64,000 nucleotides of DNA from a virus: IMG/VR virus record IMGVR_UViG_3300031788_000002, positions 62,001-126,000 of that record. One strand, 5' to 3'. Of the stretch, positions 2 to 51,633 are shown piece by piece. Under the pieces are notes generated by a model, which saw only the letters and a program-made list of their open reading frames with translations, searched no databases and was not told the origin of the DNA. Numbering within the stretch: position 1 is the stretch's first letter; the number at the start of each line of letters is the position of its first letter. Position numbers and translations under genes: made by a program.

Positions 2-1984
2 GGGTACCGCGTGGTGCGCGCCGTGGATGACCCTAGCGATGACTTCGCGTTTCAACGCCTCGTGGTTAAGGACCCCCTTCCACCAACAGTGTTGGGCGGC
101 GCGAGTTGGGTGGTTCCGGGGTGGGTGGATTCCACCTTTTTGAATTTCTGGGCGGGACTGGTGGACGCGGGCGACCCCGTGGACTTCGAGCTCATCGTTC
201 CGGTCAACGGGCAGAACGTCATCACGTTGGTGTCCACCGTGGCCCTCGGAGCGAATGCAACGCAGGTCAATCGCCTGGCGGTGGATACGGGACTCTTGGC
301 GGCTCAGCTGTCGCTTCAGCCCGGCGCGTTCGTACGTCTCGCTCGTGTACTGCGCCGTCATTTCATTCCGGTGGACAGTCGCATCGTCGATATCCCCACG
401 CTCAGCGATGTCATCGCGATCGTGGATACAGACGAGGTGTTGCTACGGAACGTGGATTACTTCCTCGAAGCGTTTCGAGGACAGTCGGCCCTGCGTTTCG
501 TGTCGGGTGTTGCGCCCGATGTCGGGGATGTTTTTGAAAGTGAGCGTCCCCCGGTGCGCTTGTGGGCGGAGTACACCTTTTTCGATAACAGCGATCTCAT
601 CGAGGCCAACTTCGGCTCTGCGATCGGTCTAACCCGGGACATGGTACCCGCTACCGTGGATTACCTATCGGCGGTGCGGGGCATCTGGTACGCGCGATAC
701 AACGGCCCGACGATGCAGAATCTGCGCATCGCCATGCAGATATTCTTAGGGCTACCCTTTGCGGAAGAAGCGGGCACCATTCTTGAGATCCGCACGGACT
801 TCTTTACGCAGCAAAGCCGTATCCTAATTCAAGATACGGCGAATGCAGCTCTTGTTCGTTCCTACGTGTACCCCCGTGTTCTTGGCCTCGAAACCAACTC
901 GGTGACGAATGCGCTGTACGCGGTTGGGGATACGGTTACGCAATTCGCGCCTCTTGTAACGGGCGCCGAGGTCGTGGATTACGTCAAGGATCCCTCGTGG
1001 TTTCAGGGGATCTTGATGCAGGGGGTCTTCTACGAAGTTCAGAAGTACCACACCTTCTTAATCCAGGTTAATAGCCAGGCGTTCAACCTTGCGTCAGTGG
1101 TGTTCGCGCAACAGTTTATTCAGAGCATCAAACCGAAGTACACGATCCCGCTCTACGTAGTGTCCATGGATGCGGGGGCGTCGGATGGCACCAACGGCGA
1201 TCAGATTGACGTGGAGGATGACGTCACCATGGTGTTGACGCTTTACCTGTACGACACACCAGGAGATCGAGAGGGCGCGAGCATTTACTTCGATGAGCCG
1301 TGGCCTTCGGGTGCGCGCTACAACAACGAGAGCTGGCGCAACTACTACGATCGTGGGGATGACCCGACCGTGGCGCTGCCCGTTTATCCTGGTCCTTCGG
1401 CACCAGTACCCTGGGGTTTTGATAAGGAGTGGGTGTGCCCTGCAGACGAACTTGAGGCAACTCAGTCAGCTGTCTTCCCCGGGGGTACCCTTCCCACGTA
1501 TGACAGCGTGTTCGCGTATGACCAAAATCTAACATCCCAAGAATTCGCGACCGTTCTTCCACCTCCTGCGTACCCCGCAACGGTTCCGCTGTTCATCGCA
1601 CCCTACGGCGGCACGATTCAACGTGCCAGTATTCAGTTGAACGGGCCTACCCAGGGGGGCGCTGCGTTAACGCAAGCTGCATGGGTCGCTACCCTTCTCG
1701 TTAATGGGGTTGCTGTGGCAATCCTACCGTTTACGCTGGGGTATACGCACCCCGTCAACGGCTTCGTTGTAACCCTACCTCAGAACATCGAGCTCACGGT
1801 AGCGCTGACGGCTGCGTTGAATGGTGGGGATGCTGTTGCCTTGTCGATTGCACCGGTGAGTGCGCTCGAACAAGTGCCGGGCTGGACGCAGATTGTGGCC
1901 GCGGTGTTCATTGAGCGCGGCGCGTGGGCATTTGATGTACCCTTGGCGGCGGGAACATATTGTAGTACGGGGGATGTTACATGA
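2..1984 (+). CDS. baseplate/tail structural protein, 5' partial
   Basis: The reading frame is open to the first bases of the window with no stop, so the gene most likely begins upstream; a GTG at 11 is the first internal start codon. At least 660 residues are encoded. A central stretch around residues 220-370 (WYARYNGPTMQNLRIAMQ, then FLGLPFAEEAG) resembles baseplate or tail structural proteins of large myoviruses. The last 150 residues are rich in beta-strand-forming residues and may be a jelly-roll-like domain. It overlaps the next gene by ATGA and heads a tail/adhesin operon. The virion role is inferred from composition and neighbours; the exact baseplate position is unknown. Confidence 0.6.
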   Translation, partial: GYRVVRAVDDPSDDFAFQRLVVKDPLPPTVLGGASWVVPGWVDSTFLNFWAGLVDAGDPVDFELIVPVNGQNVITLVSTVALGANATQVNRLAVDTGLLAAQLSLQPGAFVRLARVLRRHFIPVDSRIVDIPTLSDVIAIVDTDEVLLRNVDYFLEAFRGQSALRFVSGVAPDVGDVFESERPPVRLWAEYTFFDNSDLIEANFGSAIGLTRDMVPATVDYLSAVRGIWYARYNGPTMQNLRIAMQIFLGLPFAEEAGTILEIRTDFFTQQSRILIQDTANAALVRSYVYPRVLGLETNSVTNALYAVGDTVTQFAPLVTGAEVVDYVKDPSWFQGILMQGVFYEVQKYHTFLIQVNSQAFNLASVVFAQQFIQSIKPKYTIPLYVVSMDAGASDGTNGDQIDVEDDVTMVLTLYLYDTPGDREGASIYFDEPWPSGARYNNESWRNYYDRGDDPTVALPVYPGPSAPVPWGFDKEWVCPADELEATQSAVFPGGTLPTYDSVFAYDQNLTSQEFATVLPPPAYPATVPLFIAPYGGTIQRASIQLNGPTQGGAALTQAAWVATLLVNGVAVAILPFTLGYTHPVNGFVVTLPQNIELTVALTAALNGGDAVALSIAPVSALEQVPGWTQIVAAVFIERGAWAFDVPLAAGTYCSTGDVT

Positions 1985-2628
1985 ACGCCGACAATGTTCT
2001 TATAGAACACCGCCGCGCAGGCATCCTCGTTGAAACGCGCAGTGTTCACAATGTTTGGACGTCGGTCGGTAAAGCGTACTTATCCCAATTGGTCGCTTTT
2101 CAAGTCATCGATGACGCTATCGGTGACTTTCCGCAAGAAGACCATCGCATCAAATACTTTGGGGTGGGCATCGGCGGTAACGAAGCCTCTGGGATAGCGT
2201 ACGAAACGGTGTTGGCCACAGCGTACCCACCAGGCGAAGATCCTGTCGGTACGGCAGGCAACGCGTACAACAAGATCAATCCTACGGGACCCTTGATCAC
2301 CACGCTTGAACGCCCTGTGCGCTTCACGGGAAGTACGCAGCCGTATCCTAGTGCGCTCTCTTCCGATGTTTGGCTCTCAAACCCTCTTGTGGCGTACTAC
2401 CGCGATATCAACTCGGTGACGTTTCGCACGACATTGGATGGATCGGCGGGCATCTTAGCGTACAGCCCCTTTACGATCCTTCCCATTTCTGAGGCAGGGC
2501 TCTTCAACTCCGCGGCGTCCCCTAACTTACCGTACAACGCGGCGCTTGCTTACGTTAATTTCAACGCTCTCTTTTTCCAAAGTGACAGCGTGATCACGTT
2601 TTCTTGGACCGTGAGGTTTGCATCGTGA
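1981..2628 (+). CDS. tail-associated protein, paralogue of the next gene
   Basis: The 215-residue product has an N-terminal segment with WTSVGKAYLSQLVAFQ, followed by IKYFGVGIGGNEAS. Both match the same places in the next gene product, and both proteins end with a beta-rich segment closing in (F/V)SWT(V/F). The start ATG overlaps the upstream stop as ATGA, which implies translational coupling. The gene lies between a baseplate-like protein and large fibre-like proteins, so a tail or fibre-attachment role is likely. No enzymatic motif is visible and the family is not recognised by name. Confidence 0.6.
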   Translation: MNADNVLIEHRRAGILVETRSVHNVWTSVGKAYLSQLVAFQVIDDAIGDFPQEDHRIKYFGVGIGGNEASGIAYETVLATAYPPGEDPVGTAGNAYNKINPTGPLITTLERPVRFTGSTQPYPSALSSDVWLSNPLVAYYRDINSVTFRTTLDGSAGILAYSPFTILPISEAGLFNSAASPNLPYNAALAYVNFNALFFQSDSVITFSWTVRFAS

Positions 2629-3275
2629 GATTCACGGAAGACATTGAAGTCAAACAGAACTTGCATCTCATCGCGCGGGAACGCGGAAAGATTGTCGCGC
2701 GACGCGATGGGCACAATATCTTCGTGGATCTGGGCCGCGGGTGGCTGTCGCAGCTCATCGCGTATCAGTCCTATGCTCCCGATGTAGCCCAGCGCGATGA
2801 CCGCGTGCGCTACATGGGGTTCGGTATTGGTGGGGTTCGCCAGCTTCAACTAACGACGGCCAACAGCTCGCCCATCGGAGGCCCTGGCGATCCGTACGCA
2901 GCCAGCAGCGCTACAGGCATTGGGGCCAATAATCAAACCGACTTAAACCGTGCGGTTACGGCGCTCGAGCGCCCGGTGCGGGTGTCCGGGGGCTCCACCA
3001 GCTACCCCGGGGTGAGTGGCGATAAATGGCTGGGCGCTATCCAAGCCCCCGCGCAACATGCCAGCGGTGTGAGCACCACGTTTGCTCGGCTCTTTCTTCA
3101 AACGGAAGTCAGCTACTTACCGTTTGCGTCGGTTCCCTTGAGTGAGGTTGGGTTGTTCACGTCTGCTGCCGATTCAGGTTTCTACCTCAATACGCTCATT
3201 GCGTACGATACGTTTGATACGCTGAGCAAGACGACGGCGATCTCGCTCGAGGTCTCGTGGACGTTCAACTTTTAG
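2625..3275 (+). CDS. tail-associated protein, paralogue of the previous gene
   Basis: The start was set at GTG 2625, which overlaps the upstream stop as GTGA, rather than the TTG at 2604; a GAGG lies about nine bases upstream. The 216-residue product shares the layout of its neighbour: RGWLSQLIAYQ, then VRYMGFGIGG, a variable glycine/serine-rich middle, LERPVR, SEVGLFTSAA and a final LEVSWTF. This is a tandem duplication that has diverged strongly in the middle. It is probably a tail or fibre-attachment protein. The function is inferred only from context. Confidence 0.6.
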   Translation: MRFTEDIEVKQNLHLIARERGKIVARRDGHNIFVDLGRGWLSQLIAYQSYAPDVAQRDDRVRYMGFGIGGVRQLQLTTANSSPIGGPGDPYAASSATGIGANNQTDLNRAVTALERPVRVSGGSTSYPGVSGDKWLGAIQAPAQHASGVSTTFARLFLQTEVSYLPFASVPLSEVGLFTSAADSGFYLNTLIAYDTFDTLSKTTAISLEVSWTFNF

Positions 3276-3284
3276 GAGTTTGCT

Positions 3285-5303
3285 ATGCCATTTATTCGCT
3301 TCAACGACCCCCTTTATAATCTGCAAGGCGGCGCGTATCCGGGAAGTATCGGTACCCAAAGCTACGCGCGCGCCAACGTAACCAACGGGGGAACAGGGGG
3401 CGGTGACGGGAGTGCAAACGCCGACAGTGCCAAGGTTGGAGGGCCCAACGCGGGTACCTACTTCGTGGCGTTTGGGGAAGACGCTACCAGCACGTTTACA
3501 AACCGCGGGCTGCGAGCGCTAACCCAGAATACGGACGCGATCGACAACATTCTTCGTGGAAGCCTTCCACGCGTTGAGCGGGATACAATTGTTGTTGGTA
3601 CGGCGACCGCAAACATCTCGCTCGGAGGTGATGTATTCGTAGGCCCTAGCGGTACCCTGAACACCCAGGACGCCATCAATCGTTTGGTTTATCTCGAAAA
3701 CAGCGACGGAAGCGTTTTGTGGGTCTCGGGGCAGATACCGCTTTGCTCCCTCATTCACAATGGTGCGGGTGTCAATGTTTTGGGCACCGCGGCCGATGGA
3801 TTCTACACCAACCCCACCCTGCGCTTTCCTGTTCTAATCCCTCCGGGGACGTACACACTTTTTGTTGGACGACGCACCAGTTACGCCAACTTGTTGGAAG
3901 CCCGCGCGGGCGATTGGGTTGCGGAGCACTTGCTGGGACGCGCGTACGACTCGAATCTGTGGAAGCACTTTAGCCATGGTCTCAACGAGAAGTATCGGAA
4001 GTCCACGGCGCGCACCGGCGGTGGTGCGGAGGACAACGACACGCCCGGGAGCGGGTCGACCATCTATCGTGATGGTCCTTCGGTTTCCATCATTGCGGAA
4101 AACCACGCCTGGGAAGCATCGCCGAGCGCCTTTGATGATCCGCTGCGCGCGCAGTTCACGACCGCGCCGTTGGCAGGGTGGTATCTGGGAAGCGCGGGCT
4201 ATACGAACTTCGACTACACGATTTCGGGGAGTACGGGCCATGTGCACATTACGACACGCCGTACGTCGGGTGGGGGCACAGAGCGCGGTCCTTCGATTCG
4301 TGATGTTGCCGCAACGTTGGTGGTCAATCCGGTTGATTTGGCCGCGAATGAAGTAGGTAGTGACCCATACTTTACGTATTTAGCCGTGCGGACGCCGGCA
4401 ACCCTTAACCCCGGCAGTACAGGGTCTAGCTACGTCGCTGTCAATGCACCCTACTACTTCTCCGAGAGCGGAAAGACAGGGATAGCTTTCGGCATTGATA
4501 TTCTTTTGGTTGAGCGCTTGGATGGCGCTGTGCTGACGCGCATGCCGTACCTGGTGTACAGCCTTCCTAATGCAGTCACCGCCGAATTGATGCCTCTTGG
4601 CGGGGATATGAATTCCCCGGTTCCGACGTTCGCCCCCAATACTTCTTGTTATGTGACGTGGCTTCAAGTGGTGGACGTTGTCGGGGGCGCCACGACGAAT
4701 CAGCCGCAGCTTGGGCCGATGCCTCAATCCGGCATGGCCTACGCGCCCTTTATGCATATCTCACCGGCGCGTAATCGAGCGGGTACTCCGGACAGCGGTA
4801 TGCAGGAACTGGCTTCTGGTTTCTACGGGTCTGCGCTGAACAATACCCCCGTCTTTGCTGTTGGTAGCTTTTACTACACGGGAAACCTGTCCCCGCAGTT
4901 CACCGTTTGCTCCAACGGCAACATCGCGAACAGCGGCATCATCACCAGCGCACTACGGGAACGAACAATCGCCGCGACGATGAGCACCACGATGACGTGG
5001 AACATCGATCTCTGGAACGGTCCTTCCAGCGTGCTCTTTGACGCAACAACCGTTGTAGGCATCACGGAGCTAACGATTACCACAGTGGGTGCAACAGCGA
5101 ACTGGGCACTGACTCCAGGCGACTCCTTTACTTTCTACATCAAGAGCAATGGCTCTGCTTTTACGCTGAATACACCAAGCAATTGGGTATTTAGTCGCGG
5201 CGACAACGTTATCGCGGATCTCCTCGGACTCGTCTACATGTTCGTCTGCCGTGTGGCACCAGATGGCATCGTGCGGATCACGCGTACAGACTTCGAAGGG
5301 TAA
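3285..5303 (+). CDS. large tail fibre / receptor-binding-like protein
   Basis: AGGAG lies eight bases before the ATG. The 672-residue product has a glycine-rich, flexible N-terminus (around residues 30-55), then long beta-rich stretches with many Ser, Thr, Gly and Asn residues and few charges, typical of fibre shafts and receptor-binding tips. No signal peptide, membrane segment or catalytic motif is seen. The position directly after two tail-associated proteins supports a fibre or adhesin role. The precise fold and receptor cannot be told from sequence. Confidence 0.5.
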   Translation: MPFIRFNDPLYNLQGGAYPGSIGTQSYARANVTNGGTGGGDGSANADSAKVGGPNAGTYFVAFGEDATSTFTNRGLRALTQNTDAIDNILRGSLPRVERDTIVVGTATANISLGGDVFVGPSGTLNTQDAINRLVYLENSDGSVLWVSGQIPLCSLIHNGAGVNVLGTAADGFYTNPTLRFPVLIPPGTYTLFVGRRTSYANLLEARAGDWVAEHLLGRAYDSNLWKHFSHGLNEKYRKSTARTGGGAEDNDTPGSGSTIYRDGPSVSIIAENHAWEASPSAFDDPLRAQFTTAPLAGWYLGSAGYTNFDYTISGSTGHVHITTRRTSGGGTERGPSIRDVAATLVVNPVDLAANEVGSDPYFTYLAVRTPATLNPGSTGSSYVAVNAPYYFSESGKTGIAFGIDILLVERLDGAVLTRMPYLVYSLPNAVTAELMPLGGDMNSPVPTFAPNTSCYVTWLQVVDVVGGATTNQPQLGPMPQSGMAYAPFMHISPARNRAGTPDSGMQELASGFYGSALNNTPVFAVGSFYYTGNLSPQFTVCSNGNIANSGIITSALRERTIAATMSTTMTWNIDLWNGPSSVLFDATTVVGITELTITTVGATANWALTPGDSFTFYIKSNGSAFTLNTPSNWVFSRGDNVIADLLGLVYMFVCRVAPDGIVRITRTDFEG

Positions 5304-5305
5304 CC

Positions 5306-6763
5306 ATGAGACAAGAGCTAGTTACATCGCGGCGATTCTCCCACGAGCCTTACATCATTGAAGCGACTTCTGTGAAGAGTATTGTAACGTGGAACCCTAG
5401 TACGCAGGGGGGCCACCTTCACGTCGTCTTCAACAGCATGCCCAACGGTCCTGTGTACGTGGCGCTCGACCCTGCGTTCAATCCCGTAGAAGGGGATCTT
5501 CTTCGCATCACGACGACGGCTGAGACGTTGGGGGGAAAGATTGCTTGGTTCGGTAGCGGCAGTACGCTCTTGACCACCTACGACAACTTCAACACGCCCG
5601 TGGAGCTCCAGTACAAGCGTACGAACACCATCGGTTCTTTTCAATGGCTGCGGGTTAACACCGTACCCAATGACCTCGATGCCGCCGCTACCTTAGCGTA
5701 CGCGTTACCCAGGGAATTTAAGCATAACGGGTATATGCCCGGAGGTACCTCAACGCTGACACGCATGAGCTACGCCAAGCGAGTAGCAAGCGGCGGAATA
5801 GCGTTAGGGTCCACGGACGCGAATGGATACGGAACGCTCTTCTACAGTGAAGCGAATAGCCCCCAGTCCCTCAACGTTCTTGAGGATGCGGCTACCTTTT
5901 CGGTGCTACGCGCGGCGTGGTCGGCGGGTACGGAGGGAAGTGATCTCGTAACCCTGGGGGATGCCTCGGAACTTGGCGCACCAGGACCTATCTCAATTAT
6001 TTACAACACGAGCGCGGGTACATCGACGAACGTCACCGTCTCCGGAGGGTTTACCCGACATGTGTGCCCACCGTATCTAGGCCCGTCGGGGATTGTTATT
6101 GTTGCCGGGCGCGCTCTTGGCGGTGAAGTGACCTTTTACAACTCGAGCTCGTACGGGTACGCGTGGGGTAGTCAGGGCACAGTTACTGGCCCTGTTTATT
6201 GCGTGTACGCCGCCAATGGCTTCGTTTATTATGGGGGTGCTGGCGGTGTGTGGCGTGCTCCCTGGGACGTGAACACATGGACGCAGGTACTTACGCTCGG
6301 CGATCCGGGTGCACCGTGCACGGGGCTTGGTCCCGTTCCTGGTAATCCGGCAGGTGTGATGGCTTCGGGTGAAGGACAGGTGCTTGTCTCTCAGAGTTAC
6401 GGCGACGTCAGCACGTGGATTCCTGGCTTTGGGCAGCAGCTCTCAAATATCTTGTGGACGGGCACTGAGCTCATTGGGATCTCCGGTAATGTTTTGTATT
6501 GGAGCCGGGACCCTGAACTGCTGGACTTCAAGCGCGGCGGCGGGGGGCTTTACACGAGCCTTGGGATGCCTAGCGCAATGCCGGGTTATGACGGCTTTGT
6601 CGCCGACGCTTCCTATACATTCGATTTTCAAATGGGTCCCGATGGCGCGTACCTCATTCTTCCGGGGTCGTCTTACATGCTAAGGGACACGAGCCCGCTC
6701 ATTCCCGCGCTTTTACGTTTCTTCCCCTTGCCTTCCCTGTTCTTGTCTAAGATAACGTCATGA
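5306..6763 (+). CDS. tail-associated protein, possible beta-propeller
   Basis: This 485-residue protein starts two bases after the fibre gene. Its second half has repeated short blocks such as GFVYYGGAGGVWRAP, AGVMASGEGQVLVSQ and ILWTGTELIGISGNVLYWS. Each is a small aromatic/glycine strand group of about 40-50 residues, as seen in beta-propeller blades. The stop overlaps the next start as ATGA. A virion or host-binding role is inferred from the neighbours; no active site was recognised. Confidence 0.45.
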   Translation: MRQELVTSRRFSHEPYIIEATSVKSIVTWNPSTQGGHLHVVFNSMPNGPVYVALDPAFNPVEGDLLRITTTAETLGGKIAWFGSGSTLLTTYDNFNTPVELQYKRTNTIGSFQWLRVNTVPNDLDAAATLAYALPREFKHNGYMPGGTSTLTRMSYAKRVASGGIALGSTDANGYGTLFYSEANSPQSLNVLEDAATFSVLRAAWSAGTEGSDLVTLGDASELGAPGPISIIYNTSAGTSTNVTVSGGFTRHVCPPYLGPSGIVIVAGRALGGEVTFYNSSSYGYAWGSQGTVTGPVYCVYAANGFVYYGGAGGVWRAPWDVNTWTQVLTLGDPGAPCTGLGPVPGNPAGVMASGEGQVLVSQSYGDVSTWIPGFGQQLSNILWTGTELIGISGNVLYWSRDPELLDFKRGGGGLYTSLGMPSAMPGYDGFVADASYTFDFQMGPDGAYLILPGSSYMLRDTSPLIPALLRFFPLPSLFLSKITS

Positions 6764-7131
6764 CCGACGTTCACCCTTTTGGTCTCATGCTTTTGGCCGT
6801 GGTCATCTCGTCGGCGGTGGACGCCACGAAGGTGGTCGTTCGTTCTCTCGTACCTTCGTTTACGCCGAAGAAAACGTTGTGCGGGGCAACGAAGACGTTC
6901 ACGGTTATGTACTGCAGCACCCTTGCTCGTTTTTACAATGAGCTTGTGCTGCACGTACTTCCTTACGGGTGGGCGGCGGTGTTGGCCCTGATCCCGGAGC
7001 CGTTCACGTTTGGGCCTATGACGACGTATGCAGGGCGGCTCTTTCTGGCTTTCTTCGCCGCAACGTTTGCGGCGCTGATCTATCGCGCCTCGCGCAAGAT
7101 GCTGACGCAGGTGCTTCTCTCCCGTGTCTAA
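6760..7131 (+). CDS. small integral membrane protein, possible holin
   Basis: The 123-residue product has a hydrophobic segment at about residues 7-22, another at about 68-82 and a third at about 93-108 (LFLAFFAATFAALIYRAS), followed by a short basic tail. This size and layout are compatible with a class I holin, but no family signature was recognised. The start overlaps the upstream stop as ATGA. No endolysin is certain nearby; the papain-like protein two genes on is the only candidate. An alternative is an envelope protein for entry or superinfection exclusion. Confidence 0.45.
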   Translation: MTDVHPFGLMLLAVVISSAVDATKVVVRSLVPSFTPKKTLCGATKTFTVMYCSTLARFYNELVLHVLPYGWAAVLALIPEPFTFGPMTTYAGRLFLAFFAATFAALIYRASRKMLTQVLLSRV

Positions 7132-7138
7132 CGGATGC

Positions 7139-7158
7139 AGCCTACCTTCTGGTAGGCT
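7139..7158 (+). promoter_or_regulatory. stem-loop covering the ribosome-binding site of the next gene
   Basis: A perfect eight-base inverted repeat (AGCCTACC / GGTAGGCT) with a TTCT loop sits between two genes. Its right arm contains GGTAGG, the only Shine-Dalgarno-like element before the GTG at 7165. No T-run follows, so a classical terminator is unlikely. Folding would hide the ribosome-binding site; regulation is an inference. Confidence 0.5.
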
Positions 7159-7164
7159 CGTGCG

Positions 7165-8004
7165 GTGCCTTCGGACAACTCGTTTCTTCGCATAGCGTCC
7201 CCCGAGGGCATGGTGCTCGCTTCGGCGGTTTTGCGCGAAGCACCCCAGCCTTTCTCTGGAAGAGCGCTCGAGCAGCTTTACGTGGAGCCGGCGTATCGCG
7301 GGCAGGGATTTGCGCGGGCATTGATCCAAGAGGCCAAGCTGGCCGCTGAGGGACCCTTGTACATCAAGCCGCGTCCCTTTGGAGATATGCCCGCGAGCAT
7401 CGAGGCGCTGCGCCAATTCTACACAAAGGAGGGCTTCGTTCCGGTGGACAACCGCGATACGCTGGTGTTCGTGCCCTCGTTTCAGAAGAGCGCGGCGAAC
7501 GAGGAGAGCAGCTACCAAGGAAAACCTTCAAGCCCGAACACCGTTAAATTCACGGTCGACTTTCAGGGCTTCAAGGTGCGCGTGGACCGACCCAAGGGCT
7601 TTGTCATGGTGGGCAAAGACGCGAAGGGCACGCCTTGGAAGCGCACCTACCAGTACGACTACGGTTTCTTCCCGAAGACCGAAGGAGGCGACGGGGATGA
7701 GCTCGATGTTTTTCTGGGTCCTAACAAGAACGCGCCGGACGCGTATTGGGCGACGCAGACAAAGCCCGATGGAACCTTTGATGAGTACAAGGTGTTTCTT
7801 GGCTTTGATAGTGTAGCGCAGGCCAAGGCCGCGTACGTAGCGCACATTCCGAAGGATCGGTTGCAAAGCATGGCGACGATGTCCCTTGGGATGATGCAAG
7901 CTTTGCTAGGCTCGCCTCCGAAAGAAGACGTCGAGAAGACGTCTATGTGGAACGCTTTCTACGACGAGCTGATCCAAATCCACGCTGTTAACCCCGTGCG
8001 TTAG
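7165..8004 (+). CDS. GNAT acetyltransferase-like / polyvalent pyrophosphatase-like fusion
   Basis: The 279-residue product has two parts. Residues 1-110 look like a GNAT N-acetyltransferase, with the acetyl-CoA-binding motif YVEPAYRGQGFARAL at about 39-53. Residues 125-240 match the inorganic-pyrophosphatase-like (InPase) domain known from polyvalent proteins of phages and mobile elements: a YDYGFFPKTEGGDGDELDVF block, GPN, then FDEYKVFLGF. The acidic cluster GDGDELD would be the metal site. The start is a GTG whose ribosome-binding site lies in a hairpin. Its place among tail genes suggests it may be virion-associated or injected, but this is inference. Confidence 0.65.
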   Translation: MPSDNSFLRIASPEGMVLASAVLREAPQPFSGRALEQLYVEPAYRGQGFARALIQEAKLAAEGPLYIKPRPFGDMPASIEALRQFYTKEGFVPVDNRDTLVFVPSFQKSAANEESSYQGKPSSPNTVKFTVDFQGFKVRVDRPKGFVMVGKDAKGTPWKRTYQYDYGFFPKTEGGDGDELDVFLGPNKNAPDAYWATQTKPDGTFDEYKVFLGFDSVAQAKAAYVAHIPKDRLQSMATMSLGMMQALLGSPPKEDVEKTSMWNAFYDELIQIHAVNPVR

Positions 8005-8018
8005 AATAGGAGCCTAGA

Positions 8019-8951
8019 ATGCTGAAGCGTGTCTTTAACCATCATATTGGGCGCTTTGTTACCTTTGGTCGGCGCACGCCGACGATCGTTCAGCCGCATT
8101 ACCGGCTGAGCCGTTACATGACTACGGAGCCGACGCCGCCGGCTTCAGTGTCTTATGCCCCCGCGGCGGGACCGGCCCTCAGCGACGTGTACTGCAACAA
8201 TACGCTCGGTTGTTGCGTCATCGCATCGGGTTACCACATCGAAGGCGTGGCCACGGGCAATGCGGGCAATCTGTTTGTCGCCTCCGACGCTCAGATCGTT
8301 ACCGATTACGCGCACATCGGGGGCTACGTCCCTGGAAACCCCGCGACGGACAACGGTTGCGAGATTCAGACGGCTTTGGCGTACTGGCAGGCGAAGGGGT
8401 TTGCCAATGGAACGAAACTCCTCGGCTACATTTCGGCCAACGCCACCAACAAGCTCGAGCTGATGCTCGGCATGTACCTGTTCGAGAATTGCGACTTTGG
8501 GGTGGCGCTCCCCGACGCGTACATCAACCCCTTTCCGAGCGGCAACGGCTTCGTGTGGGATGTGGCCGGTGCCACCGATCCTCAAAACGGGCATTCCTTC
8601 TGCAGTATCGGCTACGGGCCCAGCGGGGCACTCATCGATACCTGGGGGCTTCAAGGTACGTTCACGTGGAACGCCATTGCGCAGTACGCCATTCTTAACA
8701 GTGGCGGCGAGGTGTGGTTCCTGCTGACGCCCGATATCATCAACAAGGCGATGGCCAAGGCGCCGTGCGGATTCAACCTGAACCAGCTCATCTCGGACTT
8801 CGATGGCCTTGGGGGCAGCGTGGTGGTGCCCCCCGCGCCGACGCCCGTACCCCCGCCGGTTCCCCACCCGAGCATCACCCTGGCCCAGGCGCAGCAGGCA
8901 GCTTCGGCGGGAGCGATGGCAGGGCTGAAGACCATCTGGCCGAGTAGCTAG
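8019..8951 (+). CDS. papain-like cysteine peptidase-fold protein
   Basis: TAGGAG precedes the ATG at good spacing. After a basic N-terminal arm, the 310-residue product shows NTLGCCVIASGYH at about residue 62, a candidate nucleophile Cys at a helix start. GCEIQTALAYWQ and NGHSFCSIGY follow, the latter holding a candidate His, then IDTWG with a candidate Asp. This Cys-His-Asp order fits papain-like folds found in many phage proteins. A proline-rich linker (residues 271-287) and an alanine-rich tail end it. It could be a peptidoglycan-cutting or protein-cutting virion enzyme. No signal peptide is seen. Confidence 0.5.
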   Translation: MLKRVFNHHIGRFVTFGRRTPTIVQPHYRLSRYMTTEPTPPASVSYAPAAGPALSDVYCNNTLGCCVIASGYHIEGVATGNAGNLFVASDAQIVTDYAHIGGYVPGNPATDNGCEIQTALAYWQAKGFANGTKLLGYISANATNKLELMLGMYLFENCDFGVALPDAYINPFPSGNGFVWDVAGATDPQNGHSFCSIGYGPSGALIDTWGLQGTFTWNAIAQYAILNSGGEVWFLLTPDIINKAMAKAPCGFNLNQLISDFDGLGGSVVVPPAPTPVPPPVPHPSITLAQAQQAASAGAMAGLKTIWPSS

Positions 8952-44085: not shown

Positions 44086-47000
44086 ATGGCCTACCTCAAT
44101 CCCAAGGAAGCGTTCGCCGACTTGAAGCAGAACGTCATCGAGGGGTTGCAAGCGCACTTCCCCATCACGGGGTCAAAGCAGAGCATCCATCTCGAGGGCG
44201 TCGACGTGCGTGAGCACGCACGGGATTTCAATGATCTAACGGAGCAACACAAGGCCAAAGTCGAGGGGCGCTCCTGGACGGTACCGGTCTTTGGGGCGCT
44301 GGCTCTGAAGAACAATCAAACGGGAGAGGTCCTCGATCGAAAGAGCATTCAGCTGGCGGACTTGCCGTACATGACCCAGCGGCACGCCTACATCGTTGAT
44401 GGGCGGGAATACCAGGTGGATAACCAGTGGCGCCTTAAGCCAGGCGTGTACACGCGCCGTAAAGAAGACGGGGAGCTGAAGTCTCAGTTCAACGTGCAGG
44501 GAAAGCGCCCCTTCGACATCACGTTGGATCCAGAGACCAAGGTTTTTTCCATGATACGCGGGGACTCAAAGAACATCCCCGTCTACCCCCTCATGAAAGA
44601 GCTCGGTGTCGACGACGACACGCTTCAAGCATCCTGGGGGAAAGAGGTCTTGGCGGCGAACCGAGGCGCCCGCGCAGCGGGTACGGCGCTTGAGCGCTTC
44701 TACAAAGCTGACAAGAAGCGTGCACCGACGAGCACCGAAGAAGCGCGGCAGCACTTCATCGATACGATGGAGGGTTCGAAGATACGCCCCGAGGTGACGC
44801 AGATAACGCTTGGGAAGCCCTATGACCACGTGAACGGGAATCTATTGCACGACGTTACGACCAAGATGATTGGCGTGCAACGCGGCGAGATTCCTGAGGA
44901 TGAGCGAGACAGCCTCGTCTTCAAGGATTTGCACACGGTGGCCGACTTCGCCAAGAAGGGCCTGACCGACTGGAAGACGAAGAAAGCGCTCCAAGCGCGC
45001 ACGGCACGTAAGATCAATACCGCCACCAGCATCCGCCAGGTGATTCACGGCAACATGTTCAGCAGGCCGGTTAAAGCTACATTCACCGAGAACGCGCTGG
45101 CGCGTACGGCCGATCAGGTCAACCCCGTCGAGATGCTGACTTCGAGCTTTCAAACGACCATCATGGGGCCCGGGGGAATCCAGAGCGACAACGCCATCAG
45201 TGAGTCGGCAAAGCTCATAAACCCTAGTCAAATCGGGTTTTTGGATTCCATACATACCCCCGAAGGGTCCAAAACTGGGGTAACTTTGCACCTTCCGATG
45301 GGTGTCATTAAACGCGGGAACACGCCTCTCATCCCGGTGTACAACCTGCGCACGCAGCAGATGGACCACATTGATCCTGTGACGTACCACAAGTCCGTGG
45401 TGATGATGCCCGACCAGGTAACGTGGAATAAGAGCACGCCCATCCCCGTGGGTAAGCGCGTGATGGTGTCGCAGAAGGGCAACGAGCTGGTAGAGGCCGA
45501 CGCTTCTTCCGCGGACTACGTGATGCGAAGCCCAAGTCAGCTTTTCAGCATGACTTCGAACTTGATTCCTTTTCTAGGAAACAATTCAGGTAACCGCGCG
45601 AGCTACGCCACCCATCATATCGAGCAGGCGATCAGCCTGCACGATCGGGACGCTCCCCTAGTCCAATCGGGAACAGGGCGGGCGACGGGTGTGCGTACCT
45701 TTGAAGAATTCATGGGACGGCAGTCTGCCCACATCGCGCCTACGGCGGGTACGGTGACAAAGGTCACGGCCGACGCGATCACCGTGCAGGATAAGGAGGG
45801 TAAGGACCACCACGTCACCATCTACAACAACTTTCCCCTCAATGATCCAAAGGCAGTTCTTCATAGTACGCCGGCTGTAAAGGAGGGGGATGCGGTTACA
45901 CCGGGGCAGCTTCTGGCCGATAACAACTTCACGCGCAATGGTCAGTTGGCACTCGGAAAGAACTTGCTGGTCGCCTACATTCCTTTTAAGGGACACAACT
46001 TCGAAGACGGCATCGCTATTAGCCAGACCGCCGCCGCCAAAATGGCGAGTGAGCACATGCATAAGCCGTCGATTACGTTGGGGCCTGATGCCATTACGGG
46101 CCTCGCGAAGTACAAGGCGTTGCACCCAACATCCTTCGAGACGCAGCAGCTAGAACACCTGGATGACGCAGGGGTCGTACGCGTTGGTCAAACCGTGCGT
46201 ACGGGCGATCCGCTGGTGGTGGCATCCCGCCCGTTTGACTCCAAGGGGTCGTACTCTCTGAGCAAGATTCGTAAGAGTCTAAGCAGTCAAACGCTGGACT
46301 CCAGCTTGACGTGGAAGAGTGAGCATCCCGGTGAAGTGGTGGGCATTCATCGAGATGAAGAGGGTAATGTCACCGTACATGTGCGCACCGTAGAGCCTAT
46401 GCAAGTAGGCGATAAAATGTGTTACGACGAAGAAACGGAGATGCTTACCGCGCGCGGGTGGCTTCCAGTGGCGGATGTAACGTGTGCCGACGAAGTCTGC
46501 TCTCGTGTTGACGGGCACATTGTTTATCAAAGTCCCGATGCGGTTTTTGCTTACCCAACCGGCGGGCGTATGTACCGCATCAAAAGCCGGCAGGTCGACT
46601 TACTCGTTACCGATAAGCACGACATGTTTGTCAAGGAGCGGGGGGCCTCCGACTTTTTGTTGACGCCGGCGGCTACGCTTTTTGGTCGTCGCATTCGCTA
46701 CGCCAAGAGTGGGCTCTGGCAAGGGCATGACCCGGAGTACATTGCCTTCCCCGCTCTGTGCGTTCGTGCCGGTCAGTACGGTAACGGTTCTCGGATGTTG
46801 CCCGAAGTACGGTTGCCCGTCTCGGTGTACTGCATGCTCTTGGGGGCCTACGTGTCTAACGGGCACACGTTTGATCAGCCGGGGGACTACGGCATCGCCA
46901 TTGACAAAGCAACGGGACCGCAATTCGAAGAACTGTGCCGTGCGCTAACCGAGGCGAACATCGCCTTCAGTCGTACGAACGGCGCGACCTGCTCCCGCGT

Positions 47001-50000
47001 TACCATCCATTCCAAGCAATGGCTTGAGCACTTTCGTGTTCTTGGGCGTGCACGCGTCAAGTACATCCCGGAGCACATCTTCAGTTTTTCGCGGGACAGC
47101 CTCTGCATTCTCTTTAAGTGGTTGATGTGGGGGAATAGTTCTTCAATGATGACGGGGCGTCCTGTGGCGTACTTTACCTCGTCAAAACGTCTAGCCGATG
47201 ATGTTCAGCGTTTGGCTCTGCACGTGGGCTACGCCGGTAACGTCCGTATTCACGCCGAGGAAGGGTGGCAAACGATCAAAGGTAAGCCCTCGTGGTGTGC
47301 GCGTTCCTACGAGGTGCGCATCGTTACAACGAAGCTGGAGCCTCAGGTTAATAACGGCCACGTAAAGAAGCAGCGTGCTCAAGAAGAATACTTCGTCGAG
47401 AACTACACCAAGCCGGTGTACTGCGTCCGTGTTCCCGGGCACGTTGTCTACGTTCGCCGAAACGGTAAAGCTGTTTGGTCGGGCAACTCGGGGCGTCACG
47501 GGAACAAGGGGGTCATCACCACTATCCTTCCCGACAAAGAGATGCCGCACACAGCGGACGGGCGTCCAATTGAAGTCGTCTTGAATCCTAGCGGCGTTCC
47601 CGGGCGCATGAACATGGGTCAGGTCTTGGAAACGGCGGCCGGTAAGATTGCAGAGAAGACGGGGCAGACCTACATCGTCAACAACTTCGAGCACGGTGTA
47701 GACCAACTCGATCGTGTGAAGAAGGCGCTCAAAGAACACGGGCTTACGGATACCGAAGAAGTAATTGACCCCGTGAGTGGGCAATCCCTCGGTAAAGCTT
47801 TGGTAGGTCCTCAGCACCTTCTGAAGTTGAACTTTCAAATTGATAAGAAGGTGAGCGTGCGCTCTGGTATGCCTCTTGAGGGTGCCGAACCAGAGCATTA
47901 TGATGCGGACACGCTCATTCCCGCGCAAGGGGGTAAGACGGGCGGGCAGTCCATGGGTAACCTGGGATTGTACGGGATGCTCGCGCACGGTGCGAAGCAC
48001 AATATCCGGGAGATGCAGACTTGGAAGAGTGAGGGTGCGGATCGAAAAGAGCGTTGGGACAGCCTTCACAATGAAGTGTGGCGTGCCATTCAAACGGGGG
48101 AAACACCACCCCCTCCGAAGAAGACCTTCGCGTTCCAAAAGTTCGAGGACATGCTGACGGCTGCGGGTATCAACGTCACGAAGCGCGGGCATACACTTCA
48201 GTTGACTCCCCTCACCAATCAACAGATTCTCGCGCAAAGCGCGGGGGCGTTACCCAATCCGGGCTACAGCGTCATTTCGAAGAAGGGTAAAGCAGGGGAT
48301 GAGCCCGTCGCGCGTAAAGGCGGCGTCTTCGACCCCGCGATTACGGGAGGACATGGGGGGCAGAACTGGTCGCACATTGTTCTTCCGGAGCCCGTCCCCA
48401 ACCCCGTATTCGAGCATGCGATCCAGCGTGTTCTTGGCCTTAAAGAGGGGCAGTACGCGGACATCGTTAACGGTGAGGCCGCGGTTAAGGACGGCAAGGT
48501 TGTTCCCTTGGGAACAGAGGGCTCTAAAGCGGGGGGTGCCGCCATCGCGCATATGCTGGGTGAGCTCGACGTAAAAGAGGAGCTCAAGAAAGCTAAGGAC
48601 GCTCTCGACAAGCTCAAGGTACCCGCGAACCTCGCGCATCGAGATGTTACTCCAAAACTTGATCAGCTTTCGAAGCAGGTGCGCTACCTGTCCACTTTGG
48701 ACAAGGCAGGGATTCATCCAAAGGACGCCTACGTTCTCGAAAACCTGCCCGTGATCCCACCCATCATGCGGCCCGCAAGTTTTTTGCCGAACGGTAACGT
48801 ACACGAAGCGGATCTGAACAGCTTGTACACGCGCGCTGGGCAGCTCGCGTCCGCAATGCAATCCCCCAACTACAAGTACTTGAGCGACCATGACAAGAAG
48901 GAGGATCGCTTCAATTTGTACGACAGCGTGAAAGCGCTCATGGGGGTGGGGGAAGATTGGGCGACCCGGGGCAAGCAAGGCAAGGGAGTGCTCCTTCAAA
49001 TCGCGGGCTCTGCACCCAAAGAAGGTTACTTCCAGAATACGCTCTTATCGCGTCGTCAAGACATGACCATGCGCGCCACCATCACGCCAGATGCATCCAT
49101 GGGGCTTGACCAGGTGGGCCTACCGGAAAAGAAGGCGCTCGACTTGTTCCGCCCGTTTGTAGTGAACAAGCTGCAAGAAATCGGAGCCGCTAGTACACCA
49201 CGGGAAGCGCATGCGCTTTTGTCTGAACCGGGGAAGAAAGATCCCGCGGTGTACCAGGCGCTCGATAAGGTGATGGCGGAGCGCCCCGTGCTGCTCAAGC
49301 GCGATCCGGTACTGCACAAGCACGGCGTGCAAGCTTTTTGGCCGCAGCGCGTCCCGGGGAAAGCCATTCAGATTCACCCCTTAACTACCGGGGGCTTCAC
49401 GGCCGATTTCGACGGCGACACCATGGCACTCTACGTACCCATCGGGCGCGACGCTGTTGAAGAAGCCAAGGGCATGGTGCCTTCCCGAAATGTATACAAC
49501 GAAGCCAGCGGCAAGGTTATTTACCAGCCGAGTCTGGAAGCCAGCCTGGGCTTGTTCAAACTCTCGCGTGTTACAGGGGATAGCGGAAAGACATTCGACT
49601 CCCATGCCGCCTTACTCAAAGCGGCACAAGCGGGAAAGCTGACGGTGACCGAAACCGCAACGGTCGATGGGAAGCCCACGACGGCCGGGCGTATCTTGTT
49701 GGCGTCCGCCGTTCCGGAATCGATGCAGCACGACATGTTGCACAACATGAATCTGTCCTTGAATAAAAAGGGTACGGATCGCGTGTACACGCAGATCGCC
49801 AAGGAACACAAGGCCGCTTTCGCGGATTCGGCGGTCAAGCTGATGCGCCTCGGGTACGACGCCGCCTTCGGTGTTCTCAAGATCCCTAACCCGGCAACGC
49901 AGGGAACGGCGGCGGCTGTCGAGAAAGATGGGGAACACCCCAAGGACAACGTTCAGTACTTGCCTATGGGTACGCATTCCTTGAGCTTGAACGACTTTAC

Positions 50001-51633
50001 GCCGGACAAGGCCACGCGGGATCCTATCGTGGCGGCTGCAACTAAAAAGGTGGAACAGATCAATGCGCGCACGGATCTTAGTGACGCCGAGCGAGAACAG
50101 CATGTGGTCAACACCTGGCACGATGCAACGGACCAGATGCTGAAAGAGCATGATACGAAGATGACGGCCAATCCCAATAACCTGTACCTGATGCAGCAAG
50201 CGGGTGTGAAGCCGGGGCCTATTCAATACCGGCAGCTTCGCCTGGCCCCGATGCTCATGGTGGACAGCCAGAACCGTGTGATTTCGACGCCGGTAACGAA
50301 GAGTTACTCCGAGGGGTTGGACGTGAGCTCCTACTGGACGCAGATGGCCGGTGCGCGCCGAGGATCAGTACTCAAAGTTCAAGAGGTGCGCGAACCGGGG
50401 TACTTTACGAAGAAGCTCATCAACGTAACGATGGGCCTACAGGTTACGAAGCATGATTGCGGTACGGATAACGGGCTGCACTTGCCTATCCACTCCCAGG
50501 ATATCTTTGACCGTACTCTGGCACAGGAACACACCATTGGGGGTGTGACGTACGCGAAGGACACGGTGATTACGCCGCAGGTAGCGTCCACAATCAAAGC
50601 CGCGGATAAGAACGCAACTTTGTTGGTCCGCTCAACATTGAAGTGCGACAACGGAACCGGCGTTTGTCAGAAGTGCGCGGGCCTGGCGCCCGATGGGCAG
50701 CATTATTCCTTGGGAACGAACGTTGGGATTTTGGCTACGCAAGCTCTTGGGGAACGCGCTACTCAGCTCACGCTCAAAGCTTTTCATGGAGGCGGTGTAG
50801 CGGAGCGTGGCGCAAACTTGGTCAACGATTTTATTCGCGTCCAGCAGTTGACGTCTCTGCCCAAGGAAATCCCGAACGCGGCGCGTTTGGCTGCGAAGGA
50901 TGGTGTGGTTGAGAAAATTGAAGAAGATCCCACGGGTCACGTGGCGTGGATTGGTGGCGTCAAGCACCACATCGCCAACGATGATCAGGGTAACCCGCTC
51001 TTCAAACCGCTCCCTGGGCAGACCGAGTCCACCTTACCCGGGGGCACGAAGTGGACGGGGTTGCAAGTCGGTATGAAGGTGCGCGCGGGAGACCCTTTGA
51101 CGGATCCGGCGCGCACCTATGTCAATCCCCATGACTTGTACGCCGTCACGGGAAGTATGGCTCAAGTGCAAAACCACTTGGTGACGGAGCTGCATGACAT
51201 TTACGGTCGCGAGGGCGTTCGCCGTCAGAACACGGAGACTGTGGTGCGCGCCCTTAGCGACCTGACCCGTGTCATTAACCCCGGGGATCATGAAACCATG
51301 ATCAAGGGACAGTACGCGTCGCGTGCCAAAGTGCAAGAAGCCAACCGACAGCTTATAGCGCAGGGTCTTCAGCCGATTCAGCACACGCCGATTATGAAAG
51401 GTATCAGCGTGATGCCCCTTGAGGTACAAGAGGATTGGATGGCCAAGTTGAACCATGAGCGCTTGCGGGATCCAGCGCAGGGACTGCCCGCGAGTGCCGC
51501 CCTCGGGGCTTCCTCTGATCTGCACGGGAACAACCCGGTAGCAGGCATGGCTTACGGAGCCGAGTTTGGAATGACCAACGTCAACGTCTTCGACAAGCCG
51601 CACCTTAAAGACGTCGCGTCCCACGCATACTGA
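44086..51633 (+). CDS. single-chain beta-beta' multisubunit-type RNA polymerase, with intein
   Basis: The 2515-residue precursor splices to about 2159 residues. The first part is beta-like: a GPGGIQSDNAIS fork region, LDSIHTPEGSKTG, FKGHNFEDGIAIS, GDKM joined after splicing to SGRHGNKGVI, VLNPSGVPGRMNMGQVLE and GGQSMGNLGLYGMLAHGA. The rest is beta'-like: TADFDGDTMALYV with catalytic Asp1774, 1776 and 1778, a four-Cys zinc site (C2125, C2187, C2194, C2197), and ATQALGERATQLTLKAFH for the bridge helix/trigger loop. It would transcribe DNA. The N-terminal beta' zinc site is absent and no alpha or sigma gene is seen. The chain is shorter than the sum of E. coli beta and beta'. Confidence 0.9.
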   Translation: MAYLNPKEAFADLKQNVIEGLQAHFPITGSKQSIHLEGVDVREHARDFNDLTEQHKAKVEGRSWTVPVFGALALKNNQTGEVLDRKSIQLADLPYMTQRHAYIVDGREYQVDNQWRLKPGVYTRRKEDGELKSQFNVQGKRPFDITLDPETKVFSMIRGDSKNIPVYPLMKELGVDDDTLQASWGKEVLAANRGARAAGTALERFYKADKKRAPTSTEEARQHFIDTMEGSKIRPEVTQITLGKPYDHVNGNLLHDVTTKMIGVQRGEIPEDERDSLVFKDLHTVADFAKKGLTDWKTKKALQARTARKINTATSIRQVIHGNMFSRPVKATFTENALARTADQVNPVEMLTSSFQTTIMGPGGIQSDNAISESAKLINPSQIGFLDSIHTPEGSKTGVTLHLPMGVIKRGNTPLIPVYNLRTQQMDHIDPVTYHKSVVMMPDQVTWNKSTPIPVGKRVMVSQKGNELVEADASSADYVMRSPSQLFSMTSNLIPFLGNNSGNRASYATHHIEQAISLHDRDAPLVQSGTGRATGVRTFEEFMGRQSAHIAPTAGTVTKVTADAITVQDKEGKDHHVTIYNNFPLNDPKAVLHSTPAVKEGDAVTPGQLLADNNFTRNGQLALGKNLLVAYIPFKGHNFEDGIAISQTAAAKMASEHMHKPSITLGPDAITGLAKYKALHPTSFETQQLEHLDDAGVVRVGQTVRTGDPLVVASRPFDSKGSYSLSKIRKSLSSQTLDSSLTWKSEHPGEVVGIHRDEEGNVTVHVRTVEPMQVGDKMCYDEETEMLTARGWLPVADVTCADEVCSRVDGHIVYQSPDAVFAYPTGGRMYRIKSRQVDLLVTDKHDMFVKERGASDFLLTPAATLFGRRIRYAKSGLWQGHDPEYIAFPALCVRAGQYGNGSRMLPEVRLPVSVYCMLLGAYVSNGHTFDQPGDYGIAIDKATGPQFEELCRALTEANIAFSRTNGATCSRVTIHSKQWLEHFRVLGRARVKYIPEHIFSFSRDSLCILFKWLMWGNSSSMMTGRPVAYFTSSKRLADDVQRLALHVGYAGNVRIHAEEGWQTIKGKPSWCARSYEVRIVTTKLEPQVNNGHVKKQRAQEEYFVENYTKPVYCVRVPGHVVYVRRNGKAVWSGNSGRHGNKGVITTILPDKEMPHTADGRPIEVVLNPSGVPGRMNMGQVLETAAGKIAEKTGQTYIVNNFEHGVDQLDRVKKALKEHGLTDTEEVIDPVSGQSLGKALVGPQHLLKLNFQIDKKVSVRSGMPLEGAEPEHYDADTLIPAQGGKTGGQSMGNLGLYGMLAHGAKHNIREMQTWKSEGADRKERWDSLHNEVWRAIQTGETPPPPKKTFAFQKFEDMLTAAGINVTKRGHTLQLTPLTNQQILAQSAGALPNPGYSVISKKGKAGDEPVARKGGVFDPAITGGHGGQNWSHIVLPEPVPNPVFEHAIQRVLGLKEGQYADIVNGEAAVKDGKVVPLGTEGSKAGGAAIAHMLGELDVKEELKKAKDALDKLKVPANLAHRDVTPKLDQLSKQVRYLSTLDKAGIHPKDAYVLENLPVIPPIMRPASFLPNGNVHEADLNSLYTRAGQLASAMQSPNYKYLSDHDKKEDRFNLYDSVKALMGVGEDWATRGKQGKGVLLQIAGSAPKEGYFQNTLLSRRQDMTMRATITPDASMGLDQVGLPEKKALDLFRPFVVNKLQEIGAASTPREAHALLSEPGKKDPAVYQALDKVMAERPVLLKRDPVLHKHGVQAFWPQRVPGKAIQIHPLTTGGFTADFDGDTMALYVPIGRDAVEEAKGMVPSRNVYNEASGKVIYQPSLEASLGLFKLSRVTGDSGKTFDSHAALLKAAQAGKLTVTETATVDGKPTTAGRILLASAVPESMQHDMLHNMNLSLNKKGTDRVYTQIAKEHKAAFADSAVKLMRLGYDAAFGVLKIPNPATQGTAAAVEKDGEHPKDNVQYLPMGTHSLSLNDFTPDKATRDPIVAAATKKVEQINARTDLSDAEREQHVVNTWHDATDQMLKEHDTKMTANPNNLYLMQQAGVKPGPIQYRQLRLAPMLMVDSQNRVISTPVTKSYSEGLDVSSYWTQMAGARRGSVLKVQEVREPGYFTKKLINVTMGLQVTKHDCGTDNGLHLPIHSQDIFDRTLAQEHTIGGVTYAKDTVITPQVASTIKAADKNATLLVRSTLKCDNGTGVCQKCAGLAPDGQHYSLGTNVGILATQALGERATQLTLKAFHGGGVAERGANLVNDFIRVQQLTSLPKEIPNAARLAAKDGVVEKIEEDPTGHVAWIGGVKHHIANDDQGNPLFKPLPGQTESTLPGGTKWTGLQVGMKVRAGDPLTDPARTYVNPHDLYAVTGSMAQVQNHLVTELHDIYGREGVRRQNTETVVRALSDLTRVINPGDHETMIKGQYASRAKVQEANRQLIAQGLQPIQHTPIMKGISVMPLEVQEDWMAKLNHERLRDPAQGLPASAALGASSDLHGNNPVAGMAYGAEFGMTNVNVFDKPHLKDVASHAY
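46420..47487 (+). other. RNA polymerase intein with degenerate endonuclease
   Basis: Residues 779-1134 (356 residues) interrupt the strictly conserved GDKM-xGRHGNKG segment of beta. The intein starts with Cys (CYDEETEMLTARGWLPV) and ends WSGN, with Ser as the next residue. Block B reads LLVTDKHDMFVKE. Traces of two LAGLIDADG motifs remain, LLGAYVSNG (918-926) and LFKWLMWGNSS (1009-1019), but Asn stands where the catalytic Asp or Glu should be in both, so homing activity is probably lost while splicing persists. The penultimate residue is Gly rather than His. Confidence 0.85.

What the first reader, a model, noticed from the sequence alone, without database searches (positions are those of the whole stretch)
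7165..8004. Fusion of an acetyltransferase-like and a polyvalent pyrophosphatase-like domain among tail genes
The InPase-like domain is known from polyvalent proteins carried by phages and plasmids that are thought to act early in a new host. A fusion with a GNAT domain in the tail operon suggests an injected effector.
Basis: partly seen in the sequence, partly recalled or inferred. Interest (0 to 1): 0.55.

Follow-up and report, generated by a model that had tools for sequence, protein, structure and literature searches.

The report
Acetyltransferase–pyrophosphatase fusion in phage tail operon
A large uncultured bacterial virus carries, among its tail genes, one small protein that joins two enzyme-like domains; the fusion is real and conserved in a second virus, and it may be loaded into the virus particle to act early in the host, but that delivery is not shown.

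Summary
ORF 7165-8004 (+, 279 aa) is a compact GNAT domain (residues ~1-105), a disordered linker, a polyvalent-type InPase domain (128-247) and a C-terminal helix (254-275). Both domains pass Pfam cut-offs. The InPase residues that align with the pyrophosphatase metal site are kept. A second virus (L019) has the same fusion at 56% identity, both halves under purifying selection. The gene sits in a tight plus-strand late run downstream of a tail-fibre gene, and related phages keep an InPase protein there with other partners: none, or DNA-ligase and helicase domains. So 'GNAT-InPase fusion in the tail operon' is supported; 'injected effector' is plausible but unproven. Iyer et al. 2017 already reported InPase in phage portals and fused to or beside GNAT. 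This is a new variant of a known kind. The most interesting lead lies outside the finding: the C-terminal helix resembles a short peptide at the ends of several unrelated proteins of this phage group, possibly a virion-loading tag like T4's capsid-targeting sequence.

The parts
7165..8004 (+). CDS, 279 aa GNAT-InPase fusion (GTG start, stop included)
   Evidence: same virus in L002; full-length relative L019
7165..7479 (+). compact GNAT domain, residues 1-105; coenzyme-A loop R45-G-Q-G-F-A50
   Evidence: PF13508 37.6 bits; AlphaFold model; GNAT folds fill the VIA list
7480..7545 (+). linker, residues 106-127 (106-117 below pLDDT 50)
7546..7905 (+). InPase domain, residues 128-247; D176, D178, D181, D206, E207, K209, Y166 kept
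   Evidence: PF18823 100.9 bits; conservation; alignment with solved pyrophosphatases; model
7924..7989 (+). C-terminal helix, residues 254-275, with the peptide MWNAFYDELIQI
   Evidence: model; conserved in L019, L022, L024; motif statistics
7139..7158 (+). perfect 8-bp hairpin with a 4-base loop between the upstream stop codon and the GTG start; its 3' arm holds the likely ribosome-binding site
   Evidence: fold z -3.35; only copy in the window; ribosome-site reading is by eye
6760..7131 (+). upstream neighbour, 123 aa, hydrophobic N-terminus; its homologue also precedes the InPase gene in L022 and L023
3285..5303 (+). upstream late gene, 672 aa, homologues upstream of the InPase gene in L019, L020, L021 (and after it in L024)
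1981..3275 (+). two overlapping paralogous genes (phrog_5417), syntenic in L019, L020, L021; one copy (2604-type) in L024
8019..8951 (+). downstream neighbour, 310 aa, phrog_19005 (unknown function)

Best explanation
The gene encodes a two-enzyme protein made late, together with the tail genes, and most likely carried by the virion to act in the next host cell. Shown: the two domains, their fusion in two viruses, purifying selection, a retained pyrophosphatase metal site, a retained GNAT coenzyme-A loop, and a conserved late tail-side position in related phages where the InPase partner changes. Inferred: a flexible linker lets two independent enzymes work; the InPase hydrolyses pyrophosphate or a phosphoanhydride of a nucleotide made in the infected cell; the GNAT acetylates an amine of a host (or defence) molecule; and the protein travels in the virion, perhaps through its C-terminal helix. 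The single most uncertain step is packaging and injection.
For: Domains. Late tail-side operon. Positional conservation with exchanged partners (GNAT in window and L019; near-solo in L020, L024; LigD phosphoesterase + ATP ligase + SNF2 in L022; 2H + LigD phosphoesterase + ligase in L023). Metal-site residues D176, D181, D206, E207, K209 in 74 of 74 viral InPase segments, D178 D or E in 72 of 74. Same domain family at the C terminus of the portal protein of Pa193, whose portal is in the virion. Iyer 2017 infers virion packaging of InPase proteins. Other InPase partners seen are phage-entry and conflict domains (XkdF protease, MuF_C, ART, kinase, Tad3, RelA/SpoT). C-terminal peptide shared with other proteins of the group.
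Against: No virion proteomics exists for this uncultured phage. Late expression also fits a protein that acts in the producing cell. The Pa193 paper saw no density for residues 529-765 of the portal, which include the InPase, and the passages I read do not say whether that part was found by mass spectrometry. The InPase subclade has lost the otherwise common arginine at position 148 (R in 59 of 74; M here), so substrate or activity may have changed. The GNAT is found with InPase in only 2 of 74 viral segments including the window, so the GNAT part cannot be essential to the InPase role.
Confidence: 0.45

Rival explanations
1. A late enzyme that is not packaged: it acts in the producing cell, for example removing pyrophosphate released by the phage's own RNA and DNA polymerases, or acetylating a tail protein.
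For: The phage encodes a single-chain RNA polymerase, DNA polymerase, primase and helicase, all pyrophosphate sources or users. In relatives the InPase is fused to an ATP-dependent DNA ligase domain, another pyrophosphate producer. Position in the late run fits simple late expression.
Against: The InPase family is found mostly with portal, head-protease, MuF and polyvalent effector domains, not with polymerases. Solitary cellular pyrophosphatase would do the job without a GNAT.
Confidence: 0.3
2. A structural or accessory virion part in which one or both enzyme folds are used as binding modules rather than as enzymes.
For: InPase domains sit on portal proteins and this gene follows tail genes; R148 is replaced in the subclade.
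Against: All metal-site residues are retained and both domains are under purifying selection.
Confidence: 0.15
3. An anti-defence protein whose key part is the GNAT, comparable in build to the anti-CRISPR acetyltransferase AcrVA5, with the InPase destroying a nucleotide alarm signal.
For: The first VIA row for the GNAT is AcrVA5 (6iuf_B, Z 11.6, rmsd 2.2, 88 of 95 residues) and it is as small. InPase partners include Tad3, NT5C, RelA/SpoT and 2H domains that touch nucleotide signals.
Against: The AcrVA5 row is tied within one Z unit with many tRNA-acetylating toxins and other GNATs; no sequence match to AcrVA5 was listed. No defence target is known.
Confidence: 0.1

Closest known systems
Polyvalent-protein InPase domain (Pfam PF18823; Iyer et al. 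2017, PMC5512222)
   Same: Domain family, conserved acidic residues, phage late-gene setting, fusion with other effector domains; the paper names InPase domains fused to or encoded next to GNAT and NUDIX (Lachnospiraceae WP_051639333.1)
   Different: Here a small two-domain protein with N-terminal GNAT in a tail-side operon; the InPase belongs to a separate 'DRPKGF' clade (15 of 63 sequences, support 0.998). I could not examine WP_051639333.1.
Pa193 / BcepF1 portal proteins with C-terminal InPase (PDB 9b41 chain L)
   Same: Same domain family, E 4e-45 to the family profile
   Different: Domain is on the portal there; here it is a separate protein near tail genes with a GNAT
Cellular family I inorganic pyrophosphatase (PF00719)
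   Same: Signature D-x-D-x-x-D aligns; fold rows are all pyrophosphatases
   Different: Below the PF00719 cut-off (21.4 vs 23.5 bits); Z only 5.3-6.6
Compact GNATs: AcrVA5, TacT/AtaT toxins, phiKMV Rac
   Same: GNAT fold, AcrVA5 has nearly the same small size; Rac is a phage GNAT that acetylates host RNA polymerase (passage)
   Different: No sequence-level relation shown; fold ranks are tied
T4 internal proteins with a capsid-targeting sequence (PMC3012670)
   Same: Unrelated injected proteins share only a short terminal targeting peptide (passages), as may be the case here
   Different: No packaging evidence here; the peptide is C-terminal in the InPase proteins and N-terminal in most others

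Membership tests
InPase PF18823 (polyvalent pyrophosphatase) | Score above Pfam's curated cut-off | tested here: met
   100.9 vs 26.8 bits
InPase PF18823 (polyvalent pyrophosphatase) | Conserved acidic metal-binding residues | tested here: met
   D176, D178, D181, D206, E207 present; conservation over 74 segments
InPase PF18823 (polyvalent pyrophosphatase) | Absence of the beta-hairpin insert between core strands 1 and 2 (Iyer 2017) | not tested
Cellular soluble inorganic pyrophosphatase PF00719 | Score above Pfam's curated cut-off | tested here: not met
   21.4 vs 23.5 bits
Cellular soluble inorganic pyrophosphatase PF00719 | Pyrophosphatase (OB) fold | tested here: inconclusive
   All 50 listed rows are pyrophosphatases but Z is only 5.3-6.6
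GNAT acetyltransferase | Score above Pfam cut-off and coenzyme-A loop R/Q-x-x-G-x-G/A | tested here: met
   PF13508 37.6 vs 27 bits; R45-GQGF-A50 (the motif itself is recalled)
GNAT acetyltransferase | Acetyl transfer activity | not testable with these tools
   -
Polyvalent protein (Iyer 2017) | Two or more effector-type domains in one chain | tested here: met
Polyvalent protein (Iyer 2017) | Delivered into the host with the DNA | not testable with these tools
   No virion proteome
AcrVA5-type anti-CRISPR acetyltransferase | Fold clearly closest to AcrVA5 | tested here: inconclusive
   Z 11.6 against 10.8 for the next row; rows within 1 are tied
T4-type capsid-targeting sequence | Short terminal peptide shared by otherwise unrelated packaged proteins | tested here: inconclusive
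   Shared peptide supported; packaging unknown

The most novel reading that the evidence does not exclude
The C-terminal helix of this protein, and the similar A/G-F-x-D-E-L-x-K-I-(A) peptide at the ends of other proteins of this phage group, is a virion-loading tag: a modular signal, unrelated in sequence to T4's, by which these phages with a single-chain RNA polymerase load a changing set of enzymes (GNAT-InPase, ligase-InPase-helicase, DUF5661 proteins) into the particle for injection.
Probability: 0.2. Interest if true: 0.75.

Novelty: new variant of a known kind. Interest (0 to 1): 0.4.

Why it matters
It adds a compact, experimentally handy member (two soluble domains, 279 aa) to a class whose activities Iyer 2017 inferred from sequence. 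It also shows an InPase module that stays at one late locus while its partner enzyme is exchanged between related phages. If the shared terminal peptide is a loading tag, it would predict which proteins of these uncultured phages are injected, from sequence alone.

Tried and rejected
Annotated phage GNATs: the GNAT half alone gives no tblastn match in 50,697 phage records at E 0.1 or better, so its nearest family outside this group is unknown. A profile of the GNAT halves found only the same virus and L019's virus in viral contigs. The profile of the two full-length fusions found nothing in the bacterial and archaeal genome contigs. In one search, 468 phage records matched but none over 80% of the query; I saw 60 of 468 rows. 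The one whose alignment began before residue 72 (Leptospira, query 47-231) has no GNAT by Pfam.

Idea that the window lies in a known phage: megablast of bases 1-25000 against the phage records gave no match. Terminase and capsid relatives are below 60% identity.

Idea that the L051 polyvalent protein (2518 aa, aligned to query 10-248) is another GNAT-InPase fusion: rejected, its segment carried no GNAT hit (only 2 of 74 members do: window and L019).

A strict count of the tag by regular expression gave few hits per genome and only a modest excess (for example G002 2 against 1.03 shuffled). I then used a position matrix. The first matrix included InPase tails and was seeded by a pattern taken from this protein's own tail, so searches are partly circular. 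The least circular test is (matrix of four InPase tails only): 9 non-InPase peptides score 16.1 or more, against a maximum of 14.0 on reversed proteins. Of the 9, four are probably not the tag: three are one internal motif of a single family and one lies inside a polymerase-like protein. Five are near an N terminus (one of these after an internal Met).

In one search I left four loci (L065, L068, L072, L082), which I knew to carry hits, out of the comparison set. With none dropped the comparison set has 6 peptides at 16 or more against 1 reversed, not 1 against 1. The tag is therefore enriched in, but not exclusive to, the five phage genomes.

Alignments A1 and A2 used a wrong frame for L003 and were discarded for A3 and A4. 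Literature searches. Nothing on the GNAT-InPase pair beyond Iyer 2017 appeared; one search returned no paper and four unrelated ones.

Full report
What is there. The ORF at 7165-8004 (+) encodes 279 aa. Pfam finds InPase PF18823 at residues 128-243 (100.9 bits, cut-off 26.8) and GNAT PF13508 at 26-92 (37.6 bits, cut-off 27). The AlphaFold model (63-sequence alignment, mean pLDDT 85.4) shows a compact GNAT up to about residue 105, a linker with pLDDT below 50 at 106-117, a beta-rich InPase domain to about 247 and a separate C-terminal helix 254-275. An antisense ORF of 281 aa overlaps the 5' end; it is mechanical, and the plus-strand gene has the codon-position pattern of its neighbours.

Is the fusion real. 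A second contig carries the same virus (99.994% over 16,001 bases). Locus L019, from a 117,624-base virus record (G001), encodes a full-length relative, 296 aa, 58% identical over residues 15-272, 56% over the alignment. NG86 estimates give dN 0.51, dS 3.2 for the GNAT and dN 0.27, dS 1.6 for the InPase. dS is saturated for the GNAT, so the ratios (about 0.16 and 0.17) are rough, but both halves are constrained. An 18-residue block of the GNAT (LYIKPRPFGDMPASIEAL) is identical in the two.

How common. Of 73 distinct viral InPase segments (each cut to about 165 aa on either side of the domain) plus the window, 2 of 74 carry a GNAT: the window and L019. Of 78 segments from bacterial genome contigs plus the window, 1 of 79 does, the window itself. 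A GNAT further than about 165 aa away would be missed. G002 has a stand-alone related GNAT of 134 aa (31% identity over 94 columns, E 7e-9) about 102 kb from its stand-alone InPase gene.

The InPase. D176, D181, D206, E207 and K209 (this protein's numbering) are present in 74 of 74 viral segments; D178 is D in 51 and E in 21. The profile aligns the D-x-D-x-x-D stretch with the same stretch of solved pyrophosphatases; that these are metal ligands there is established knowledge, and Iyer 2017 speaks of four acidic residues. All 50 fold rows for the domain are pyrophosphatases, at Z 5.3-6.6, which is weak. In the viral alignment R148 is arginine in 59 of 74, but in this protein's clade it is M or Q, and the motif is D-R-P-K/R-G-F/Y instead of E-N-P-K-G-S-x-R (one member has P-M-G). 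That clade holds 15 of 63 sequences with support 0.998. The change may alter the substrate.

The GNAT. Fold rows are all GNATs or acetyltransferase domains; the top row is the small anti-CRISPR acetyltransferase AcrVA5 (Z 11.6, rmsd 2.2, 88 of 95 residues), tied with tRNA-acetylating toxins and others. Foldseek's own top rows are AtaT and KacT type toxins. This shows a compact fold, not a function.

Where it sits. The window is bases 62001-126000 of a 167,481-base virus record. A tail-fibre gene by PHROG (E 3e-22) lies at L004 14466-17699, i.e. record 56466-59699. From there a plus-strand run of closely packed genes passes through this gene and on to about 14278; the spacing is 33 bases before it and 14 after. 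After that, replication and recombination genes run on the minus strand. In L019, L020 and L021 homologues of window genes 1981-2628, 2604-3275 and 3285-5303 lie upstream of the InPase gene; in L024 an InPase gene lies next to the 2604-type homologue. In L022 and L023 a homologue of the immediate upstream gene 6760-7131 (E 7e-15 and 6e-14) precedes the InPase protein by about 1 kb, and in L022 homologues of 9214, 9643 and 9981 follow. There the InPase is part of 1,329- and 1,236-aa proteins with LigD-type phosphoesterase and weak ATP-ligase matches, plus SNF2 (L022) or 2H (L023) domains. So the position is kept while the partner changes.

Delivery. Nothing here proves packaging. For it: the InPase family is fused to portal proteins (Pa193 portal, E 9e-16 to this protein; annotated 'minor head' proteins in phages), to a Clp-type protease in a head operon and, next to or within the segments, to XkdF protease and MuF_C domains. 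Iyer 2017 infers packaging (passages read, not the whole text). Against: no proteome; the Pa193 paper could not see residues 529-765 (passages read); late position alone does not mean packaging.

The C-terminal peptide. The tail after the InPase is alike in this protein, L019, L022 and L024 in spite of different partners. A matrix of 11 such peptides, scanned over ORFs of five phage records (516,840 residues), gives 17 unique peptides scoring 16 or more (8 of them not in the training set), against 0 in reversed and 1 in shuffled proteins. Other InPase loci give 6 against 1 reversed, none dropped. A matrix of the four InPase tails alone gives 9 non-InPase peptides at 16.1 or more, reversed maximum 14.0; five of these are near an N terminus. 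One carrier has a DUF5661 domain. With a matrix from non-InPase proteins this protein's tail scores 16.4; the 99th percentile of 2,000 shuffles is 12.4 and the maximum 19.3. The pattern was found by looking at this protein's tail, so the numbers are supportive rather than conclusive. T4 packages unrelated anti-restriction proteins through one shared capsid-targeting sequence (passages of PMC3012670), which is the model for the bold reading.

What is known. New here: a two-domain phage version conserved in two viruses, its distinct InPase clade, its fixed late locus with exchanged partners, and the shared terminal peptide. A search for InPase + GNAT + phage found only that paper in the library.

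Verdict. Real feature; new variant of a known kind; interest moderate.

Noticed in passing
window 44086-51633: One 2,515-aa ORF joins RNA polymerase beta-type and beta-prime-type domains in a single chain, with a likely intein or homing-endonuclease insert around residues 775-1137 (LAGLIDADG hit only E 0.015).
   Followed up: partly
L008 444-1520 and 1523-3145; L006 10149-10556; L104 7421-7822; L102 8031-9548; L127 13680-14717: Short peptide like AFxDELxKIA near the N terminus of otherwise unrelated proteins; the two L008 proteins also repeat a KAAWxKLA-like peptide.
   Followed up: partly
window 7139-7158: Perfect 8-bp hairpin just before the GTG start, with the likely ribosome-binding site in its 3' arm; could regulate translation.
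   Followed up: partly
L109 16625-18583 (G002) and L123 8555-12197 (G005): These phages have a second InPase in large low-complexity late proteins, fused to or next to DUF5661.
   Followed up: partly
window 8019-8951: 310-aa neighbour (phrog_19005) with a Cys/His pattern that looks papain-like by eye; no Pfam or solved-structure match.
   Followed up: partly
window 1981-3275: Two overlapping paralogous genes (phrog_5417), both conserved in several relatives.
   Followed up: no
L132 (Polyangiaceae MAG contig JABFXY010000170.1): The only bacterial-genome contig among the sequences of the DRPKGF tree; a possible hint to a myxobacterial host range for part of the clade.
   Followed up: no
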